A stretch of DNA of 64,000 nucleotides, taken from the NCBI GenBank assembly GCA_027533395.1, contig JAPZUF010000007.1, positions 1 through 64,000 on the forward strand, read 5' to 3'. The translations under genes were made by a program, and so were the position numbers. Position 1 is the first letter of the stretch. Each line of letters opens with the position of its first letter. Positions 37,801 to 45,356 of the stretch are shown here, piece after piece. Under the pieces are notes generated by a model. It was given only the letters and a program-made list of their open reading frames with translations. It was not told where the DNA came from and searched no databases. Source of the DNA: Cyclobacteriaceae bacterium (GTDB lineage: Bacteria; Bacteroidota; Bacteroidia; Cytophagales; Cyclobacteriaceae).

Positions 37801-37949
37801 GAAGAGAAGATATCTTAGTAGTTGCCGGAGGTGTAATACCCGAACAAGATTACGATTATTTGTTTACGAAAGGAGTGGCCTTTGTATTCGGACCGGGAAC
37901 TCCTATTACTGAAAGCGCGAAGAAGATTTTAGAACGAATGAAAAGTTAG
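34815..37949 (+). CDS. Methylmalonyl-CoA mutase, small and large subunits fused
   Basis: A 1044-residue protein. Residues about 1-340 resemble the small (MutA) subunit without its B12 domain; about 345-1044 form a complete large (MutB) subunit: the TIM barrel with [20 protein letters not shown] and [16 protein letters not shown], and the C-terminal cobalamin-binding domain with [14 protein letters not shown] (DxHxxG, His930). It interconverts methylmalonyl-CoA and succinyl-CoA. No GTPase domain separates the parts, so it is not IcmF. The ATG at 34815 is preferred over an upstream TTG. A GTPase chaperone (meaB) and epimerase are not in the window. Confidence 0.88.
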
Positions 37950-37954
37950 TTTTT

Positions 37955-37975
37955 CGAACATCGTTGTTCGTTTTT
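37955..37975 (+). terminator. Short intrinsic terminator after the mutase gene
   Basis: CGAACA (37955-37960) and TGTTCG (37965-37970) form a 6-bp stem with a TCGT loop, followed by TTTTT. It starts 6 bp after the mutase stop codon. Confidence 0.65.
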
Positions 37976-38105
37976 CAATTTCAAAATGCCAAATTAAAAA
38001 TTTGAAATCTGGAATTTTGTCTAGTCCTAGAATCGGTTTATATCAAGCGTATAGAATACTCAGAGTCCCTTAAGGATGACTATGAGTAGGTTCAAATAAA
38101 ATTCT

Positions 38106-38831
38106 TTAAACTCGTTTATGCAACTCGTACTCTGGCATTTCATCGTAGGTACGGCCATTTAATAAGCGGCCATTTGCCTTTTTATTTCTTCCGCCCCATT
38201 GCTTAAAGAAAAAGGCAACGTCTGCTTTTTCGCATTGTTCTTGAATATCTAATACCCAATCCGGATCCATAGGTCGGGGTTTATGACCACTTTCTCCACC
38301 TACAATTACCCAATCAATTTTTTTAAGATTTAATTTTTTTAGTGGACCAATTAGTGGTTCGCAGGATAAAAACTTAACCTTTGCTTTTGTTTTTCGCAAG
38401 AAGCGGATTCTATCTATTACATTTTCATTTTCTACAGAAACGCCCATCCAAATATTATGTGTCCATTTTAATTCGTTCTGTAATTCGTATAATCGCTCAG
38501 CTCTTTTGGTTAACACCTGAAAAACATGCTGAGGGTTTTCGTTCATTACTTTAAAAACTTTCTTAATAAATTCTAATGGAATGTCTTTATGAAAAAGATC
38601 GCTCATAGAATTAACGAATACAACTTTAGAAGATTTCCACGTGTAGGGAATATTAAGTTGGTCTTCGTGAGTTCGCACCTTAAAGCCATCTTTGTATTTT
38701 TCTATGCCCATGGCTTTTAATCTTTTAGACATAACCTCGGCATAACAAAATTTACACCCTGTTGAAATTTTTGTACACCCTGTGGTAGGGTTCCAAGTCA
38801 TTTCTGTCCACTCGATACTTGATTGTGCCAT
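38106..38831 (-). CDS. DUF5131 family protein (phage Gp37/Gp68-like)
   Basis: A 241-residue protein of a family found in bacteria, phages and defence-related neighbourhoods. The N-terminus [14 protein letters not shown] leads into three clustered cysteines (Cys19, Cys26, Cys29: [13 protein letters not shown]), suggesting an iron-sulfur or radical-SAM-like site, followed by the characteristic [32 protein letters not shown] and WVIVGGESG segments. The reaction is unknown. In other genomes it often pairs with a three-Cys-motif partner (TcmP); none is visible here. It opens the accessory block. Confidence 0.85.
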
Positions 38832-38942
38832 ATTTATAGTAGATACAAATTCAATTAACCAAGAGTAAATGAAAAACCAAGAAAAAAATAATTAAAAAAC
38901 TTATTTTTAAAATAAATAAACTTGCCACTAGAATTTAAAAAA

Positions 38943-39638
38943 ATGATTCTCTTCTTGTTCAATTCCTTACAACTGGTAATTAAATTTTTAAAAATATATA
39001 AGAATGAATCCTTAATAATTAAGTGGTATAAAGAAAGCTTGAAAAAAATATTCACATATTTTACAACAATAGAAAATGAAAAACTAACAACTTTTCTTTT
39101 TTCGGTATTTCTAACTTTATCTATTGATTTTGCTTTAGCCAACTTAATAATTAAATTAAGTACAGGTAAGGAAATAGATTCATTTTCAACTATATCACTT
39201 TCACTTTTTTGTTTTTCAATTTTTGTGCTTGTTACAAAAGAAAGTTACAACGAAGCAAAAATTAATTTATTAAAAGTAATTAAAAATACTGTAGGCTTAT
39301 TGCTTTTATTCATTCTTGCAATTATCTATTTCGTATATAATAGGATCTATGAGAAGATACTATATTTTGATTTAAACGAAATTAAATTCTTTGGAGCTTT
39401 AATATTTATTATTCTAATTTTACTAATTATTATATTCGGATTAGCGTTTTTGTATTTAAAATTAAGGCAAATTATAACTAATTTAATTTGTGATTGGATT
39501 AAGAATTTCTCAAATCACTGCATTGTAAAAAATAAAGATGAGCCACAAGAAGTTTTGATTATTTGGACAGAACTATTTTTTTACATTTATCAATTATTCA
39601 TCTTCATTATTGCTATAATAAGTTTCAAATTATTATAA
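38943..39638 (+). CDS. AT-rich membrane protein of unknown function
   Basis: A 231-residue protein with about four strongly hydrophobic segments (LTTFLFSVFLTLSIDFALAN, SLSLFCFSIFVLV, TVGLLLLFILAIIYFVY, FGALIFIILILLIIIFGLAF) and a further C-terminal one. Codons are extremely A/T-biased relative to the flanking core genes, consistent with acquired DNA. No family was recognised. It is transcribed towards the deoxyribosyltransferase-like gene and separated from it by a palindrome. A role as membrane effector or transporter of the accessory block is speculation. Confidence 0.6.
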   Translation: MILFLFNSLQLVIKFLKIYKNESLIIKWYKESLKKIFTYFTTIENEKLTTFLFSVFLTLSIDFALANLIIKLSTGKEIDSFSTISLSLFCFSIFVLVTKESYNEAKINLLKVIKNTVGLLLLFILAIIYFVYNRIYEKILYFDLNEIKFFGALIFIILILLIIIFGLAFLYLKLRQIITNLICDWIKNFSNHCIVKNKDEPQEVLIIWTELFFYIYQLFIFIIAIISFKLL

Positions 39639-39648
39639 ATATCTCCTA

Positions 39649-39680
39649 ATTACCAAGTTAAATCAATTTAACTTGGTAAT
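39649..39680. repeat. 15-bp perfect inverted repeat between convergent genes
   Basis: ATTACCAAGTTAAAT (39649-39663) and its exact complement (39666-39680) flank a 2-nt centre. The right arm encodes the last residues and stop of the minus-strand gene. It probably terminates transcription of both convergent genes, although neither side has a clear T-run. Confidence 0.75.
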
Positions 39681-41152
39681 CCTGCTTTTGGATTTTGTGT
39701 TTTATCAAATTGATTCCAAAAACAATGTGCTAAAACTCCCCATCCAGTCATAACTCTAACTACACTATTAGTTTCTCTTTCTCTTAATACAATTCCATGT
39801 TGTTCATATCGAATATCTACATCCAGTGAATTGGTTAAAATTTTATATAAAATTTTTGAACATTCCTCTGGCGTCCTTACAACAATCACACCTCTAGCAA
39901 CACCATCATATAAGCCAACCTGAAGTCCTAATGGATGAAAATCTTTGAAAGTTTTTGCTCTTTTCTCTAAGGTTTCCTTTTTTGTAGCAAGCTTAGCTAG
40001 TTTTTCATTTTCATTTTCAATTTCAGCTATATCAATGTCAGTTATTTTGGGAATAGGCACGTAAACGATAACTGGCTTACCTTGGGCCATAGTTGCTGCT
40101 AACTCACTATCTTTTCCGAAAGTATCTCCCTCTTGGGCACAATAAATTGTTACCTTTGAACTTCTAACTAATAAACATTCAATAACACCCTTATCAATTC
40201 TACTTTCGCAATAACAAAGAGTTGGATCAAAGTATCTAAGATTTAAAGATTGTATTTTTTCATCTTTAAAAGTCTCCTCGACAAAGTTGTACATATCATG
40301 ATACTCAGCATCATTTCTCATAGAAGTTGCAACATAAACATCTATGCTTTCGATATTTCTTAAATAATGTTCTTGATTTCTCTTTCCAATTTCTTTTAAT
40401 AACTCTATTTTCTCAATAGTTTCAGATATTTGCTTTCTAAAATCAGCTAACACTATTTTGGTAGATTCAAGTTCGCTTGATGAAAATAGATCAAGGTTTT
40501 TTATTTCCTTTAACTTATTAAACTCTTCGATCTTATTCTTTATTTCAGGTTTCTTTTTTGAAAGTTTTTCTAAAATCCTTTGTGAAATTTCTTGACTAGA
40601 TAAATCGACATACGAACTGCTATTTTCTTCTAATTCTGTTACAACCAACTCAGCAAATCCTAATAATTCTTGTTGATGCTTTGGTCTTTGACCAGAAACA
40701 TAACCTAAAAAACCTCTATCTGAAGGATTTATTTGTTCTACTAAACTCCAGGGTAATCGTCCTTTTAACTCTTCAACATGAAATGAATGCTCATTAAAAT
40801 ATGACTCAATACCTACCATATCCGAAAGAGATAAGTAGGCTCGCCTTAAATCTCCAAAATGCCAAAGTGCATCAACGATAAACTTGTCAAGTCCGGCTTT
40901 AAATTCTTGAACTGAAACAATTGTTACAGGGAAATATCTATTGAAAAATTCATTGTTTATCGGTGGTAAATTCCAGTTATTAGCTAGGATATTGAATCTT
41001 TCACGATCCAATTCTATATTTCCATCACTAAACATTAAATCTATAGTTTCACTAAATCCAGAGGGAACTTTATCATCTTTGAGTAATGGTATTTCACTCT
41101 TAATTGCGGTAAGCAATAATTTTGATATTTTTATATCATTCATAATTTTCAT
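39668..41152 (-). CDS. Protein with nucleoside-deoxyribosyltransferase/TIR-like domain
   Basis: A 494-residue soluble protein. Residues 1-180 are a domain I do not recognise, about 185-265 are predicted coiled coil, and about 268-370 look like the nucleoside 2-deoxyribosyltransferase/TIR/SLOG-like fold: ESIDVYVATSMRN, then SRIDKGVIECLLVRSSKV and DSELAATMAQGKPVIVYVP, where Glu350 occupies the usual catalytic position. A C-terminal domain (about 400-494) follows. Related domains in immunity proteins cleave NAD or nucleotides; by analogy this could be an abortive-infection effector, but no activity can be proven. It lies upstream or downstream-adjacent to the methyltransferase gene on the same strand. 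Confidence 0.65.
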   Translation of the reverse strand: MKIMNDIKISKLLLTAIKSEIPLLKDDKVPSGFSETIDLMFSDGNIELDRERFNILANNWNLPPINNEFFNRYFPVTIVSVQEFKAGLDKFIVDALWHFGDLRRAYLSLSDMVGIESYFNEHSFHVEELKGRLPWSLVEQINPSDRGFLGYVSGQRPKHQQELLGFAELVVTELEENSSSYVDLSSQEISQRILEKLSKKKPEIKNKIEEFNKLKEIKNLDLFSSSELESTKIVLADFRKQISETIEKIELLKEIGKRNQEHYLRNIESIDVYVATSMRNDAEYHDMYNFVEETFKDEKIQSLNLRYFDPTLCYCESRIDKGVIECLLVRSSKVTIYCAQEGDTFGKDSELAATMAQGKPVIVYVPIPKITDIDIAEIENENEKLAKLATKKETLEKRAKTFKDFHPLGLQVGLYDGVARGVIVVRTPEECSKILYKILTNSLDVDIRYEQHGIVLRERETNSVVRVMTGWGVLAHCFWNQFDKTQNPKAGLPS

Positions 41153-41215
41153 AATAAATGTTATAGACTTTTAAACACTTGTTAAAACAAATCTAGAATT
41201 TTAAAGACATTATTA

Positions 41216-41235
41216 TATAGGTATTTCTACCTATA
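41216..41235. repeat. 8-bp inverted repeat TATAGGTA-TTTC-TACCTATA
   Basis: A perfect palindrome lies in the 139-bp gap between the methyltransferase stop (41292) and the start of the deoxyribosyltransferase-like gene (41152). It could be an operator upstream of that gene or a weak terminator of the methyltransferase transcript; base composition does not decide between them. Confidence 0.65.
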
Positions 41236-41291
41236 CACATCAGTTAGTTGGAGGAAAATTGAAAGTTACAAAGAGAAGTAAAAGTAAAACT

Positions 41292-43667
41292 CTACCTCTT
41301 CAAAAACCCATATTCATACACTTTGGGTTCTATTTTGGCTGCGAGTTGTTTAAGTTGCTCGCGCAGGGTGTTGATGTGCCCCATGTAGATTTCGTCTGTG
41401 CTTTTGTTGTTCATTTTACCTGCTTCGTTTCTGCCCTGGAAATACTCGCGTATATCGTATAGCGAAGCGTTAACGTTGTGGTGTGGCTGTTGGTGGTAGT
41501 ATTGCCACAAAGCACGGCCGGCATTTAATACAGCCTGTGCTTGTGCCGAAAACACAAGCGGTGTGCTGCGGTGTTGCTGTGCGCCAAACAAATCGGTAGT
41601 GGTGCTTGGTTTTAGTTTGCCCGCTATAAACTGACTCATAAAATTACTCTCGAACTTATCGCGTGCGTTTACTTCTTTTTCGGTGAAGGGTATCCAATGG
41701 TTAATACCATCATTGGAGGTAATATAATTCTGATGATGAAAGAGTGAAAATGTTAAGCAGTCGTTTTGAAATTCATAGTCATCTGACCATTCTCTATTAG
41801 GATATAAGTATTGGTCCCTATCATTAAGCCAAGTTGCCTCTATACAATGACGTATTGTAAGATAAATACATGAAATAAGAAGATTAGATTGAGTAATTAA
41901 GAACTTACCATCCCCACCTAAAACAATTGTTTCAAAATTTGTTATTCGAATTCTGTTCTGATGTTGAAAATCATTACTGTTAAATATAAGCTTCGCAACT
42001 GGATTTAATTTGTCTTTAAATAATACCAACCACTTATTTAGAAATAAAGAATTATCATATGTTGAAAATTCTTTTCTACTAATTTGAATTCTATTTTCAT
42101 CAAAAACATCTGCAATTATTGAACTAAAAATTTCATCTTTATTTGAATTATATATTTGAAATCCTATAGGAAATTTACCTTTAACATTATCAAATGTATT
42201 AGCAGGTACAACAAACAATTTTTCAATTTTTGCTTTGAATAAACTTCTCAATGTTTGAAAATCAGGGGCATTCAGCATTTTCAACTTAGAAAAAATTCCA
42301 ATTTTACAGCCTTTAATTTCCTTATAAATTCTAAACAAAAACTGTATGTATAACTCATCTTTTGCCTCACCTAATTCATCACTATGCCATGTGGTATTTG
42401 CTACTCCTAAACCTCGCTTGTAAGGCGGATTAATGTACATCACTAACTTTTTTCTTTTCTCGGGGTTGTTTATAATGTCTTGCAAGCCCTGGGGTAGTTT
42501 GGTAAACTCATCGTTTAAAAAATCGAACTGAAATACGTGGTCGTGCAAAAGGTTAGCTCCGTTGTTTATGCGGTCGTGCATTACTTCTACATCTTGCCTG
42601 TCGAGGGTTGAGGCCCAAATATTATACTTGTTCGTTAGTCCGTTTAATAAATTGCCTGTGCCTGCGGCACAGTCCCACACGTAGTATTCGTCTTGCCAAT
42701 CTTCGCCCAATACATCGGTTAAATATTTTTGCGAGAGTTCTACCCAAATTTGGGGTGTAAAAAAACTGCCTTTGCGCTCGCGCACATCTTGTGGCACTAG
42801 CAGGTCTCTACGCTCAACTATATAATCCCAGTATTCTTCTTTAGGTGGGCGGTCGTATTTATTCCAAAATTGTGTGTGGGCTGCTTGCTTATCGGTAAAC
42901 TCGGTTCGCTTGCTGCTAAACATGCCTGCTTCGTCTATTTTTCTGTCGAGCTCGTAGTGGTCGTGCTTCAACAATACAAATAGTTTTTCTTTTAAGGTGT
43001 TGTTTTCTTGCGAGAGTAAATCGGCCAAATAAAAATCGCCATCGATTATGCCATTTTTTTTGGCGGCATCCCAATTTACAGCAATGGTTGGTTTTACATA
43101 TTGCAACCATTTGTTGTAAATAACCGTGAAATTGTTTTTGTCTATTCTGGTTTTGGTTAAACCGAATTTACCAACAACAAAATTCTTCTTTATAAATTGT
43201 TTTAGTTCTTTATCGTCTGTATCAAAATAAAAAAGTGTTGCTTTTTTAGTGATGATGCTTTTTACTTTTTCGAGTACGAGTTTAAACTCTTTGGTATCGT
43301 GGTTAGAGGGCGTAACGTTCCAATTAAAATCGTTGATGTAAAAAATATCGTGTATATCGTTGTAGGGTATGAAGGCAATTTTTTCGCCATCGAAGGCGCC
43401 CAACATATCGGGTGGTAAAAATTTATCGAAGGTGCGGGCTTTGCCAATGGTAAGGATAAGTTGCACAATAGATTTATAAATATCAGATGCTCCTTTTTTA
43501 GATTCGGCCCATAGCAAAGATTTTTGTTCTTCGGGGTCTTTTTTAGTTTGCAGGGTGCTTACACAGAAATCTACATTGCCAATAATTTTGGTGCAATCGT
43601 ATAGCCAAAAGTAGTCTTGCGCTACTTTGTTTTTAAGTTCTTCTTCTCTAATGTTTTGGTATTTCAT
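41292..43667 (-). CDS. Adenine-specific DNA methyltransferase, type IIG-like
   Basis: A 791-residue N6-adenine methyltransferase. Motif I WDCAAGTGNLL (about 327-337, AdoMet site) and motif IV NPPY (about 412-415) are clear. The N-terminus has D33 followed by LLWAESKKG (Glu55-x-Lys57), compatible with a PD-(D/E)xK nuclease, so the chain may both cut and methylate. The segment after NPPY (about 420-650) is the probable target-recognition region and is far more AT-rich than the rest. The C-terminal 130 residues return to ordinary composition. No separate restriction or specificity subunit is adjacent. The ATG at 43667 is preferred over a GTG four codons upstream. Confidence 0.82.
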   Translation of the reverse strand: MKYQNIREEELKNKVAQDYFWLYDCTKIIGNVDFCVSTLQTKKDPEEQKSLLWAESKKGASDIYKSIVQLILTIGKARTFDKFLPPDMLGAFDGEKIAFIPYNDIHDIFYINDFNWNVTPSNHDTKEFKLVLEKVKSIITKKATLFYFDTDDKELKQFIKKNFVVGKFGLTKTRIDKNNFTVIYNKWLQYVKPTIAVNWDAAKKNGIIDGDFYLADLLSQENNTLKEKLFVLLKHDHYELDRKIDEAGMFSSKRTEFTDKQAAHTQFWNKYDRPPKEEYWDYIVERRDLLVPQDVRERKGSFFTPQIWVELSQKYLTDVLGEDWQDEYYVWDCAAGTGNLLNGLTNKYNIWASTLDRQDVEVMHDRINNGANLLHDHVFQFDFLNDEFTKLPQGLQDIINNPEKRKKLVMYINPPYKRGLGVANTTWHSDELGEAKDELYIQFLFRIYKEIKGCKIGIFSKLKMLNAPDFQTLRSLFKAKIEKLFVVPANTFDNVKGKFPIGFQIYNSNKDEIFSSIIADVFDENRIQISRKEFSTYDNSLFLNKWLVLFKDKLNPVAKLIFNSNDFQHQNRIRITNFETIVLGGDGKFLITQSNLLISCIYLTIRHCIEATWLNDRDQYLYPNREWSDDYEFQNDCLTFSLFHHQNYITSNDGINHWIPFTEKEVNARDKFESNFMSQFIAGKLKPSTTTDLFGAQQHRSTPLVFSAQAQAVLNAGRALWQYYHQQPHHNVNASLYDIREYFQGRNEAGKMNNKSTDEIYMGHINTLREQLKQLAAKIEPKVYEYGFLKR

Positions 43668-43867
43668 GCGTGTGGGCACCGTGCTAAGATGTAATATAAA
43701 ACGAGAAACAATTTTAACCTAAAAATGTGGATTATTACTTAGGTATAGAAACAATACTTGTTAAAAGAGAAGTTTGTGGGAGATTTTGATAGTAAGTGTT
43801 TTGAGAAGGTCAGTGATAATGCTTAATCCTTCATCGGTTGCCCCTATCTGACGCATGCGTGCCTCGT

Positions 43868-43940
43868 GTGCCAATCTAAAATTAAGAGATGAGCAAATTG
43901 CATTCAGGTGATAACATCTGGCAGGGCGTAGAGTGTTTTA
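43868..43940 (+). repeat. Palindromic repeat, copy 1 (degenerate)
   Basis: GTGTGCCAAT followed by GATGAGCAAATTGC leads into CATTCAGGTG-ATAA-CATCTGGCAG (43901-43924) and GGCGTA. The hairpin arms carry mismatches compared with copies 2 and 3. The flank before the hairpin is shared with copy 3, defining a unit of about 60 bp. Confidence 0.75.
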
Positions 43941-43971
43941 TTTTATACCAATCCTATTTATTAATGTGTTG

Positions 43972-44006
43972 CTGTCAGGTGATAACACCTGACAGGGCGT
44001 AAAATT
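43972..44006 (+). repeat. Palindromic repeat, copy 2
   Basis: CTGTCAGGTG (43972-43981), ATAA, CACCTGACAG (43986-43995): a perfect 10-bp stem followed by GGCGTAAAAT. The upstream flank differs from copies 1 and 3. Confidence 0.85.
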
Positions 44007-44232
44007 TGAAATCTGTAATTTGAAATCTGAAATTTCTCACTCCCTCACTCGTCCTCGCTTGTAACTAGGACGTATATCATTAGCATTTATAATGCTTTCT
44101 CCTCTACATATACTTCCCAAAGAGATGCTTCACTTCCTAACGGAAGTCAAGCCTAACGCACAGCAATTGGCAATAAAACAAACAACCAAAAACCAACATC
44201 GAACACACAACAACATAACCAAGCAAGGGAAT

Positions 44233-44301
44233 GTGTGCCAATATAAAATCTGTGATGAGCAAATTGCTGTCAGGTGATAACACCTGACAGGGCATAAAAT
44301 A
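44233..44301 (+). repeat. Palindromic repeat, copy 3
   Basis: The shared flank GTGTGCCAAT...GATGAGCAAATTGC leads into CTGTCAGGTG-ATAA-CACCTGACAG (44267-44290) and GGCATAAAAT. The stem is identical to copy 2 and the flank matches copy 1. Confidence 0.85.
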
Positions 44302-44366
44302 TAATTTCTTACGTCTTAAATCCTAAATCTACTTCGAACAATCAACAACATTCAACTAACAACAAA

Positions 44367-45356
44367 TTAATGCAAGTTTCTCCAAATCAAATCCTTCAAG
44401 GCCATGATGCCTTGTTGTGTTACAGAGGATATAAACACAACGGGTAAATCTTCCGGCAATTCTTTTTTCATCTCCGTCATTAATTCATCATCCAACATAT
44501 CCGACTTAGAAATGGCGAGTAATCTTTTCTTATCTAACAATTCAGGATTGTATTTGCGTAATTCACCAAGTAAAATATCATATTCTTTTCTGATGTCTTT
44601 TGCATCAGCCGGTATTAAAAACAAAAGCAGGGCATTGCGTTCAATGTGTCGCAAAAAACGAATGCCTAATCCTTTTCCTTCTGCAGCGCCTTCAATGATA
44701 CCCGGAATGTCCGCCATCACAAAAGATTTATCATCGCGATAAGCCACTACCCCTAAGTTAGGCGTTAAGGTTGTAAAAGGATAATCACCAATTTTAGGTT
44801 TAGCAGCCGATACAACCGATAACAAGGTAGATTTACCTGCATTAGGAAAACCAACCAAGCCAACATCAGCTAATAATTTTAATTCGAGAATGATCCACTC
44901 TTCAATGCCGGGCTCTCCGGGTTGTGCATAATCGGGTGCGCGATTGGTAGAGGTTGCAAAAAAAGCATTGCCTTTTCCGCCTCTTCCTCCTGGTGTTAAA
45001 ATAACTTCTTGTCCATCTTCTGTAATCTCACACACTAATTCTCCTGTATCTGCTTTTCTGGCTACTGTGCCAAGGGGAACTTCAATGATTTCATCTTTAC
45101 CCGAAGCACCCGTTCTATCTTGCGCATCGCCTCTTTCTCCTGCTTCGGCAATAATGTGTTTGCGGTATTTCAAATGCAAGAGCGTCCACATTTGTGCGTT
45201 GCCACGCAAAATAATATGTCCACCCCTTCCACCATCACCACCATCAGGCCCACCATTAGGGTTGTGTTTCTCTCTGTTAAAATGCAAATAGCCTGGTCCA
45301 CCTGCGCCTGAGCGCGAACAGAATTTTACGTAGTCAATAAAGTTGGGAGCAGACAT
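44367..45356 (-). CDS. obgE: GTPase ObgE/CgtA
   Basis: An essential ribosome-associated GTPase of 329 residues. The glycine-rich Obg fold ([34 protein letters not shown]) is followed by the G domain: GFPNAGKST (G1), [16 protein letters not shown] (G3) and SKSDML (G4). The C-terminal domain found in some Obg proteins is absent, as is usual in this phylum. The ATG at 45356 is the canonical start ([10 protein letters not shown]). It is followed by the repeat-rich region. Confidence 0.96.

What the first reader, a model, noticed from the sequence alone, without database searches (positions are those of the whole stretch)
41292..43667. Base-composition mosaic in the methyltransferase gene: swapped target-recognition region
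The central part of the gene differs sharply in composition: 42121-42180 has 12 G/C of 60 (20%), while 42661-42720 has 32 of 60 (53%). The AT-rich segment (about 41700-42410) begins right after the NPPY motif and covers the expected specificity domain, while both ends are richer in G/C. This suggests recombination has exchanged the recognition domain.
Basis: partly seen in the sequence, partly recalled or inferred. Interest (0 to 1): 0.6.

Follow-up and report, generated by a model that had tools for sequence, protein, structure and literature searches.

The report
Restriction-modification enzyme with swapped recognition cassette
A bacterial DNA-cutting-and-protecting enzyme keeps its two ends but has had the part that should read the DNA target replaced as a block by recombination, and its relatives do this so often that the family looks like a natural swap kit for DNA-recognition modules.

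Summary
The finding holds. The gene (43679-41292, minus strand, 795 aa) has an AT-rich centre: 27.6% G+C between parts of 39% and 46%; its contrast was reached in 0 of 20,000 codon shuffles. A same-genus homologue is 97-99% identical in DNA over residues 1-420 and 661-795 but 56% over 421-660; the left border falls on the last base of NPPY. The window's middle is closest to genes from other assemblies instead. In 79 family members the ancestry of the middle is nearly unlinked to the rest; 6 of 7 pairs with backbones at least 90% identical carry different middles. Composition alone was a weak clue: 76 of 83 members have a lower-G+C middle.

The protein is predicted to be a single-chain Type IIG restriction-modification enzyme: PD-(D/E)XK-like nuclease, spacer, gamma-class methyltransferase, recognition domain, helical tail. 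The exchanged block also holds the post-NPPY loop and the second half of the catalytic fold. Relatives occur in tandem arrays, mostly with similar backbones and different cassettes, including nuclease-less companion copies. Exchange of recognition domains is known elsewhere; family, junction and arrays look like a new variant. Activity and target sites are untested.

The parts
41292..43679 (-). Whole gene, 795 aa: predicted single-chain Type IIG restriction-modification enzyme
   Evidence: ORF; AlphaFold2 model from an alignment of 61, mean pLDDT 85.1; best Foldseek match BpuSI, E 6.2e-11
43176..43667 (-). Predicted PD-(D/E)XK-like nuclease domain, residues about 5-168
   Evidence: D37, E59 and K61 (GTG numbering) invariant in the 59 sequences of A2; domain model best matched by BpuSI 14-168 (Z 7.9, 3.4 A, 130 aligned) and DrdV (Z 7.4); Foldseek alone gave no match at E<=0.001
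43497..43505 (-). ExK motif, E59-S-K61
   Evidence: Alignment A2; sequence
42810..43175 (-). Spacer between nuclease and methyltransferase, residues about 169-290
   Evidence: Helices plus a few strands in the models; position as in MmeI (PMC4833311, passages)
42420..42809 (-). Conserved first half of the methyltransferase fold, residues 291-420
   Evidence: Mean pairwise identity 0.83 in 79 members; fold matches over 292-789
42654..42674 (-). Motif I, DCAAGTG (SAM binding)
   Evidence: Sequence; D336, G340, T341, G342 invariant and C337, A338, A339 nearly so in A1
42420..42431 (-). Motif IV, NPPY (catalytic); its last base is the left border of the cassette
   Evidence: change-point between L007 and L038 at residue 420, third codon position
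41700..42419 (-). Exchanged specificity cassette, residues 421-660, AT-rich
   Evidence: 56% nt identity to L038 against 97-99% on both sides; right change-point at residue 660
42345..42419 (-). Hypervariable post-NPPY loop, residues 421-445
   Evidence: 79 of 82 other members carry an insertion here, median 16 aa; in MmeI, base-contacting residues 487-489 follow NPPF 481-484 (PMC4833311, passages)
42135..42344 (-). Second half of the catalytic fold, residues 446-515, travels with the cassette
   Evidence: Nearest-neighbour agreement with 516-605 in 24 of 79, with N, catalytic and C segments in 3-6 of 79
41865..42134 (-). Core of the target recognition domain, residues 516-605
   Evidence: Most variable part: mean identity 0.30-0.33 in the 30-aa windows from 522 to 611; position after the methyltransferase fold
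41700..41864 (-). End of the cassette, residues 606-660; the right border differs between pairs (about residue 597 to 746 in 14 pairs)
41295..41699 (-). Conserved C-terminal helical region, residues 661-795
   Evidence: 98-99% nt identity to L038; helices in the model
37943..44381 (.). Island holding the gene, a SLOG-like gene, a hydrophobic ORF and a DUF5131 gene; absent at the matching place in the sister species
   Evidence: G001 has 1.67 kb of other sequence between the two matched flanks

Best explanation
The gene encodes a single-chain Type IIG restriction-modification enzyme whose specificity cassette (residues 421-660) has been exchanged by homologous recombination. The conserved first half of the methyltransferase (up to NPPY) and the conserved C-terminal part act as homologous arms; what lies between is replaced as a block. 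Shown: sharp borders, unlinked ancestry, conserved ends under purifying selection. Inferred: the nuclease and methyltransferase are active, and a new cassette changes the target of both activities at once, so the cell stays protected while gaining a new specificity. The post-NPPY loop is probably included because in MmeI the residues just after this motif touch bases. The direct donor is unknown. Two routes fit: recombination with incoming DNA, or an earlier tandem copy of which each lineage kept a different one. I put these at about 45% each.
For: Sister-species comparison: nt identity 0.97 and 0.98 (residues 1-290, 291-420), 0.56 (421-660), 0.98 and 0.99 (661-720, 721-795). Backbone dN 0.004, dS 0.114; cassette 421-605 dN 0.60, dS 1.4. 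The cassette's nearest relatives are L093, L029 and L030, those of the ends L038. Across 79 alleles identity of N correlates with catalytic at 0.62, with C at 0.52, with the middle at 0.11; 6 of 7 pairs with backbones >=0.9 carry different middles. Of the supported splits of the middle, 39 of 43 conflict with a supported split of N; N against C conflicts in 9 of 30 and N against catalytic in 8 of 30. Nearest-neighbour agreement falls into two blocks. Tandem copies in L077: nt identity 1.00, 0.99, 0.59, 0.95, 1.00 over the five segments. Fold: BpuSI, DrdV, CamA, M.BseCI, MmeI; N-terminal domain. Weak family hits: PD_DExK in 2 of 61, MTase_II in 23 of 61, Pfam N6_Mtase in 6 of 61 members.
Against: The window protein itself matches no Pfam or PADLOC model and only two NCBIfam models far below cut-off. 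Whole-chain superposition is poor (TM 0.21, rmsd about 20 A to BpuSI), so only domains are matched. Foldseek on the N-terminal domain alone had no match at E<=0.001 (best 0.28), and Z 7.9 is just under the tool's caution line of 8. No cassette closer than 78% aa was found in 390 genomes of the order. The own genome holds one copy only, so no local reservoir remains. Parts of the backbone conflict too (8-9 of 30 splits), so the ends also recombine or are poorly resolved. The plain correlation of the loop 421-445 with 516-605 is only 0.07; that they travel together rests on nearest neighbours. Many comparison loci are metagenome assemblies. Activity, target site and its change are untested.
Confidence: 0.86

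Rival explanations
1. No exchange: the middle is simply fast-evolving under diversifying selection and diverged in place by point mutation.
For: The middle is the most variable part (mean pairwise identity 0.41), and cassette dN is high.
Against: Backbone dS of 0.114 between L007 and L038 leaves too little time for a cassette dS of about 1.4. Similar cassettes sit on more distant backbones (L007 with L093, L029, L030; L078 with L095 at 0.96 against 0.84 in N). The borders of L007/L038 are sharp to the codon.
Confidence: 0.03
2. The composition step reflects protein structure or a family-wide habit and says nothing about exchange.
For: 76 of 83 members have lower G+C in the middle; the sister allele L038 has the same AT-rich middle (-0.131) although its cassette is different.
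Against: The size here is unusual (rank 5 of 83) and GC3, which protein structure hardly constrains, shows it too (-0.27). GC3 of N and C parts correlates at 0.88, GC3 of middle and flanks at 0.65. Exchange is shown independently of composition.
Confidence: 0.06
3. The protein is an orphan methyltransferase with a non-nuclease N-terminal domain; the swap changes methylation only.
For: No library recognises the N-terminus of the window protein; Foldseek alone is not significant.
Against: D37, E59 and K61 invariant in 59 sequences; the helix-strand order of a PD-(D/E)XK core (pattern recalled); the best ranked matches are the nuclease parts of BpuSI, DrdV and EcoR124I HsdR. Nuclease-less companion copies exist beside full ones, which suggests that the N-terminus has a function of its own.
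Confidence: 0.12
4. A dedicated site-specific recombinase or invertible shufflon swaps the cassette.
For: The left border lies at residues 419-423 in 13 of 14 pairs (390 in one). One locus, L143, has a partial copy and a full copy on opposite strands about 6 kb apart.
Against: No repeat pair flanks the cassette within 37900-44400, the genome has one copy, the other arrays read are direct, and right borders scatter from about residue 597 to 746. A common left border is expected wherever conservation ends.
Confidence: 0.03

Closest known systems
Type IIG enzyme BpuSI (PDB 3s1s)
   Same: Predicted domain order nuclease, spacer, gamma-class methyltransferase, recognition domain in one chain; best Foldseek match and best match of the nuclease model
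   Different: No sequence match of the window protein in the PDB search at E<=1; whole-chain superposition poor
Type IIL MmeI family
   Same: Same order, including a C-terminal helical bundle, and one chain with a shared recognition domain (PMC4833311, passages); base contacts just after NPPF
   Different: No sequence match; in the passages seen, MmeI-family diversity is described by residue changes and covariation, not by exchange of a block that begins at motif IV
Domain movement and TRD exchange in Type I S genes and a Type IIG S gene of Helicobacter pylori
   Same: Recognition domains move by recombination at flanking repeat sequences (PMC3077401, passages; PMC3983042, passages)
   Different: There the moving domains lie in separate S subunits with two TRDs; here one cassette inside a fused nuclease-methyltransferase chain, with half of the catalytic fold
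Type ISP enzymes LlaGI and LlaBIII
   Same: Single-chain homologues with different targets (PMC4872093, passages)
   Different: They carry a helicase-like motor; the model here shows none
Type IIG enzymes that need a partner methyltransferase
   Same: PMC3936762 (passage) states that some Type IIG families need a second methyltransferase for the other strand; relatives here have a nuclease-less companion gene
   Different: The companions here are near-copies of the enzyme's own backbone, 7 of 8 with another cassette; their role is not shown

Membership tests
Type IIG (single-chain) restriction-modification enzyme | Nuclease domain in the same chain as the methyltransferase | tested here: met
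   By motif and predicted fold only: invariant D37, E59, K61, best matches BpuSI and DrdV; Foldseek alone not significant
Type IIG (single-chain) restriction-modification enzyme | Gamma-class adenine methyltransferase, motif I before motif IV | tested here: met
   DCAAGTG at residues 336-342, NPPY at 417-420; fold matches over 292-789
Type IIG (single-chain) restriction-modification enzyme | Recognition domain C-terminal to the methyltransferase in the same chain | tested here: met
   By predicted fold: alignments with M.BseCI and CamA run to residues 786-791; position of the hypervariable part
Type IIG (single-chain) restriction-modification enzyme | Cuts and methylates DNA at one site | not testable with these tools
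   Needs purified protein or methylome data
MmeI (Type IIL) family | Sequence homology to MmeI | tested here: not met
   phmmer of the window protein against PDB chains: 0 sequences at E<=1, although MmeI is in that set; the 60 rows shown of 94 in the profile search hold no MmeI
MmeI (Type IIL) family | Methylates one strand only, without a second methyltransferase | not testable with these tools
   The window gene has no companion copy beside it, which would fit
Invertible specificity shufflon | Inverted repeats and silent partner genes in the same genome | tested here: not met
   No repeat pair at the cassette borders within 37900-44400; one copy in the genome
Invertible specificity shufflon | Recombinase gene beside the locus | not tested
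   Only four ORFs of the window were scanned; none was named a recombinase

The most novel reading that the evidence does not exclude
The family is a self-diversifying restriction system built from direct tandem copies. A full enzyme is followed by a nuclease-less methyltransferase copy; gene conversion keeps their backbones alike while each keeps its own cassette, and certain cassette pairs stay together across lineages because they read the two strands of one site. The window gene would be a solitary derivative that took or kept one cassette of such an array.
Probability: 0.3. Interest if true: 0.75.

Novelty: new variant of a known kind. Interest (0 to 1): 0.52.

Why it matters
Joining nuclease and methyltransferase to one recognition domain should let an enzyme change target without self-damage. 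This family is a natural record of such changes: 52 groups of middles (single linkage at 65% identity) in 79 alleles on one conserved scaffold with a nearly fixed left junction. The start of the abstract of PMC4872093 (listing) calls engineering new specificities an unaccomplished challenge; these natural junctions suggest which block to move, including the post-NPPY loop, and give many cassettes whose targets could be read by methylome sequencing. The arrays of enzyme plus companion make it testable whether gene conversion maintains a stock of specificities.

Tried and rejected
Spurious matches: the family profile matched Rab GTPases weakly in the middle region (best E 0.0017) and one member hit Pfam Ras (E 1.3e-6). 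I treat this as chance because the region lies inside a methyltransferase and recognition-domain model; I did not test for GTPase motifs.

Conserved partner genes: of 69 loci longer than 9 kb, a DUF5131 relative was found in 2, TcmP in 1, the SLOG-like and hydrophobic ORFs in none. L030 (4.3 kb, left out for length) also shows a DUF5131-like match in DNA. The gene is not part of a fixed operon with them.

Donor search: the window cassette was sought in 390 genomes of the order (36 with a match, own genome included; best other 78%) and in viral contigs (one relative at 42%). No donor found. Whole-protein search of phage records: no match.

Inverted repeats or shufflon in the window: none at the cassette borders.

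Matched cassette pairs: of 12 neighbouring pairs tested, three (L136, L137 and the first two copies of L061) carry the same two cassette groups, in both orders. Permuting partners reached 3 double matches in 53 of 5,000 (mean 0.34) at threshold 0.55; at 0.60 and 0.65 only one double match remains. The test was post hoc and left out L134 and L079, whose two copies share a cassette. I keep it as a lead only. Three searches in families rich in the gene were run to add arrays and gave too few new complete ones.

Rows dropped: 94 copies were extracted after leaving out duplicate and fragment loci. L025 and L026 (26% identical) were dropped before the alignment; conservation used 82 other members of at least 760 aa; composition used 83 with the window gene; linkage and trees used 79, dropping L084, L085, L092 and L107. 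The 80 genome loci are the best of 163 found.

Full report
1. The observation. The two 60-base counts are exact, and the gene on the minus strand (43679-41292) has an AT-rich centre of 27.6% G+C (41700-42410) between parts of 46.2% and 39.2%. A codon shuffle never reached the contrast (0 of 20,000), and the other 7 window genes of at least 1500 nt show less than half of its GC3 contrast. GC3 of the conserved ends (0.41-0.52) lies above, and that of the middle (0.19) below, the mean of the other 36 window genes tested (0.31, sd 0.04), so both parts look foreign.

2. Composition alone is weak evidence. I aligned the gene with relatives found in genome contigs (163 stretches encoded a relative, 80 kept), in related genomes (11 of 98 with a match, the own genome and short fragments included) and on one viral contig. 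In 76 of 83 members the middle has lower G+C than the flanks, by 0.047 on average over all; this gene is 5th of 83. Middle GC3 follows flank GC3 less well (rho 0.65) than N follows C (0.88). That fits cassettes that move between backbones, but a family trait is mixed in.

3. The exchange itself. The homologue in G001 of the same genus is the key (locus L008; a contig of the same length and match appears as L038 under the title Flammeovirgaceae bacterium). DNA identity is 0.97 over residues 1-290, 0.98 over 291-420, 0.56 over 421-660, 0.98 over 661-720 and 0.99 over 721-795. The change-points fall on the last base of NPPY and at residue 660. Backbone dN/dS is 0.004/0.114, cassette 0.60/1.4: the ends are recent and under purifying selection, the two middles are old and different. 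Over residues 446-605 the window cassette is closest to L093, L029 and L030 (71-79% aa; next best 67% and 40% in the two halves), while each of the five segments outside the cassette is closest to L038.

4. It is a habit of the family. In 79 alleles, pairwise identity of the N part correlates with the catalytic part at 0.62 and the C part at 0.52, but with the middle at 0.11. 39 of 43 supported splits of the middle conflict with a supported split of N, against 9 of 30 for N with C and 8 of 30 for N with catalytic; 31 of 34 supported splits of the whole backbone conflict with the middle. So the ends recombine somewhat too, the middle far more. Seven pairs have backbones at least 90% identical; six carry different middles, one (L047/L052) the same. 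Nearest neighbours agree within two blocks, {N, catalytic, C} in 16-27 of 79 and {421-445, 446-515, 516-605} in 24-29 of 79, and rarely across (2-8 of 79); 606-660 sits between (7-12 of 79 with all). I conclude that the loop, the second half of the catalytic fold and the TRD core travel together. Against this, the plain correlation of loop and TRD core over all pairs is only 0.07, and of 446-515 with the core 0.42; the link shows among close relatives. Left borders lie at 419-423 in 13 of 14 pairs and at 390 in one; right borders vary from about residue 597 to 746. Single linkage at 65% identity gives 52 middle groups.

5. What the protein is. No Pfam or PADLOC model matches the window protein, and two NCBIfam matches are far below cut-off. 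Among 61 members, Pfam N6_Mtase matches 6, PADLOC MTase_II 23 and PD_DExK 2, all weakly. A model from that alignment (mean pLDDT 85.1, pTM 0.62) has BpuSI as best Foldseek match (E 6.2e-11), then DrdV and CamA, with M.BseCI and MmeI further down; whole-chain superposition is poor (TM 0.21 for BpuSI), so it is the domains that match. VIA-align gives Z 13.8-17.1 in the 50 rows shown, most of them over the methyltransferase and recognition region. The first 296 residues from the ATG modelled alone (pLDDT 87.3) rank BpuSI (Z 7.9, rmsd 3.4, 130 aligned), DrdV (7.4) and EcoR124I HsdR (5.9) first, though Foldseek alone found nothing at E<=0.001. D37, E59 and K61 are invariant in 59 sequences. I read this as a Type IIG enzyme with the domain order of MmeI: nuclease, spacer, methyltransferase, TRD, helical bundle (PMC4833311, passages). 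In MmeI, motif IV is 481-484 and residues 487-489 contact bases, which would explain why the cassette starts right after NPPY.

6. Where the DNA lies. In G001 the flanks of the window locus (window 37942 and 44382) are 1.67 kb apart and lack the gene; there the gene is on another contig, beside a TcmP-like gene (name recalled; PADLOC PDC-M41A) and DUF5131. The DUF5131 gene is 97% identical in DNA in both genomes. Flanking DNA is 90-95% identical on the obgE side and about 87% on the other, less than the gene's own ends. The gene therefore moved, or was acquired, as part of an island. Distribution is patchy; counting the own genome, 6 of 395 genomes in a phylum sample, 18 of 395 in a class sample, and 36 of 390 in the order when the cassette is sought.

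7. Tandem arrays. Six loci of the first collection hold two or three copies head to tail (L048, L055, L061, L065, L077, L079). In L077, nt identity over the five segments is 1.00, 0.99, 0.59, 0.95, 1.00. Of the 49 same-genome pairs listed, 48 have middles at most 67% identical in protein; L079 is the exception at 96%. Fetching further places showed a recurrent pair: a full gene followed at once by a nuclease-less copy of 514-539 aa whose match begins at residue 283-300 and which keeps motifs I and IV. There are 8 such pairs in 6 genomes, one companion cut short at 340 aa. In 7 of 8 the cassettes differ (33-46% aa); in L134 they are alike (93%), as after a recent conversion or duplication. Within a pair the catalytic parts are 87-100% and the C parts 71-99% identical; in 7 of 8 pairs the companion's closest catalytic part is its own partner. 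One locus, L143, has a partial and a full copy on opposite strands. One genome (G529) holds 16 family matches, some of them partial. One search lists two stops in one companion of G529; its range begins upstream of the start, and one search found the 522-codon frame open.

8. Mechanism. Shown: block exchange between conserved arms, and tandem copies with similar ends. Inferred: homologous recombination or gene conversion; change of target; nuclease activity. In L007/L038 nt identity stays at 0.96-1.00 in the 15-codon blocks next to both borders, so the exchange ended close to them or the donor had nearly the same backbone, as a tandem copy would. The own genome has one copy, so such a copy would have been lost. 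Both routes remain open.

9. What is known. TRD movement by recombination is described for Type I S genes and for a separate Type IIG S gene (PMC3077401, PMC3983042; passages). Type IIG enzymes are said to change specificity more readily because both activities share the TRD (PMC4833311, passages). PMC3936762 (passages) reports Type IIG genes that change specificity by adding a small domain. I saw no description of this family, of a junction after NPPY, or of enzyme-plus-companion arrays in the listings of eight searches; these cover openly licensed papers only, and REBASE was not searched.

10. Verdict. The system is a new variant of a known kind; the arrays with companions are the most novel part and lie outside this window.

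Noticed in passing
L133, L134, L135, L065, L136, L137, L138, L139: Full enzyme followed directly by a nuclease-less copy with similar backbone and, in 7 of 8, another cassette; the same two cassette groups recur in L136, L137 (reversed) and L061.
   Followed up: partly
L121:1122-4487 (G406): A 1121-aa family member with about 310 extra residues in the linker near residue 693-705: short repeats around a stretch that resembles a Vsr/DUF559-type endonuclease (resemblance recalled, not tested).
   Followed up: no
L142 and G508:C53:73003-76816: Two places in one genome where the gene is split near residues 307-346 with 1-1.4 kb of other sequence between its parts.
   Followed up: no
L143 (G561:C162): A partial copy at the contig start and a full copy on the opposite strand, about 6 kb apart.
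   Followed up: no
43898-44328: Three copies of an intergenic repeat, two of them with the palindrome TCAGGTGATAACACCTGA, between the gene and obgE.
   Followed up: no
39668-41152: 494-aa neighbour with a weak SLOG-cluster match below the cut-off (E 0.03), GC3 0.19; in the sister genome a TcmP-like protein (PDC-M41A) lies between the gene and DUF5131.
   Followed up: partly
38106-38831: DUF5131 protein, matches PADLOC PDC-M41B and PDC-M30B; 97% identical in DNA in the sister species at another locus.
   Followed up: partly
plasmid records NZ_KM583817.1, AP026445.1, NZ_LC523991.1, NZ_CP090070.1: Relatives (29-46% identical) on small plasmids of Helicobacter pylori, Fluviibacter and Acinetobacter, annotated as hypothetical protein or without annotation under the match.
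   Followed up: no
L061:7299-8000: A small gene between two tandem copies, by eye a stand-alone nuclease-like protein; not searched.
   Followed up: no
L038:6853-7758: GHKL-ATPase protein beside the homologue with a PADLOC DrmA match (E 2.3e-14) over a short part of that profile.
   Followed up: no
L109 and L132 (IMG/VR contigs): Family members on contigs classed as viral.
   Followed up: no
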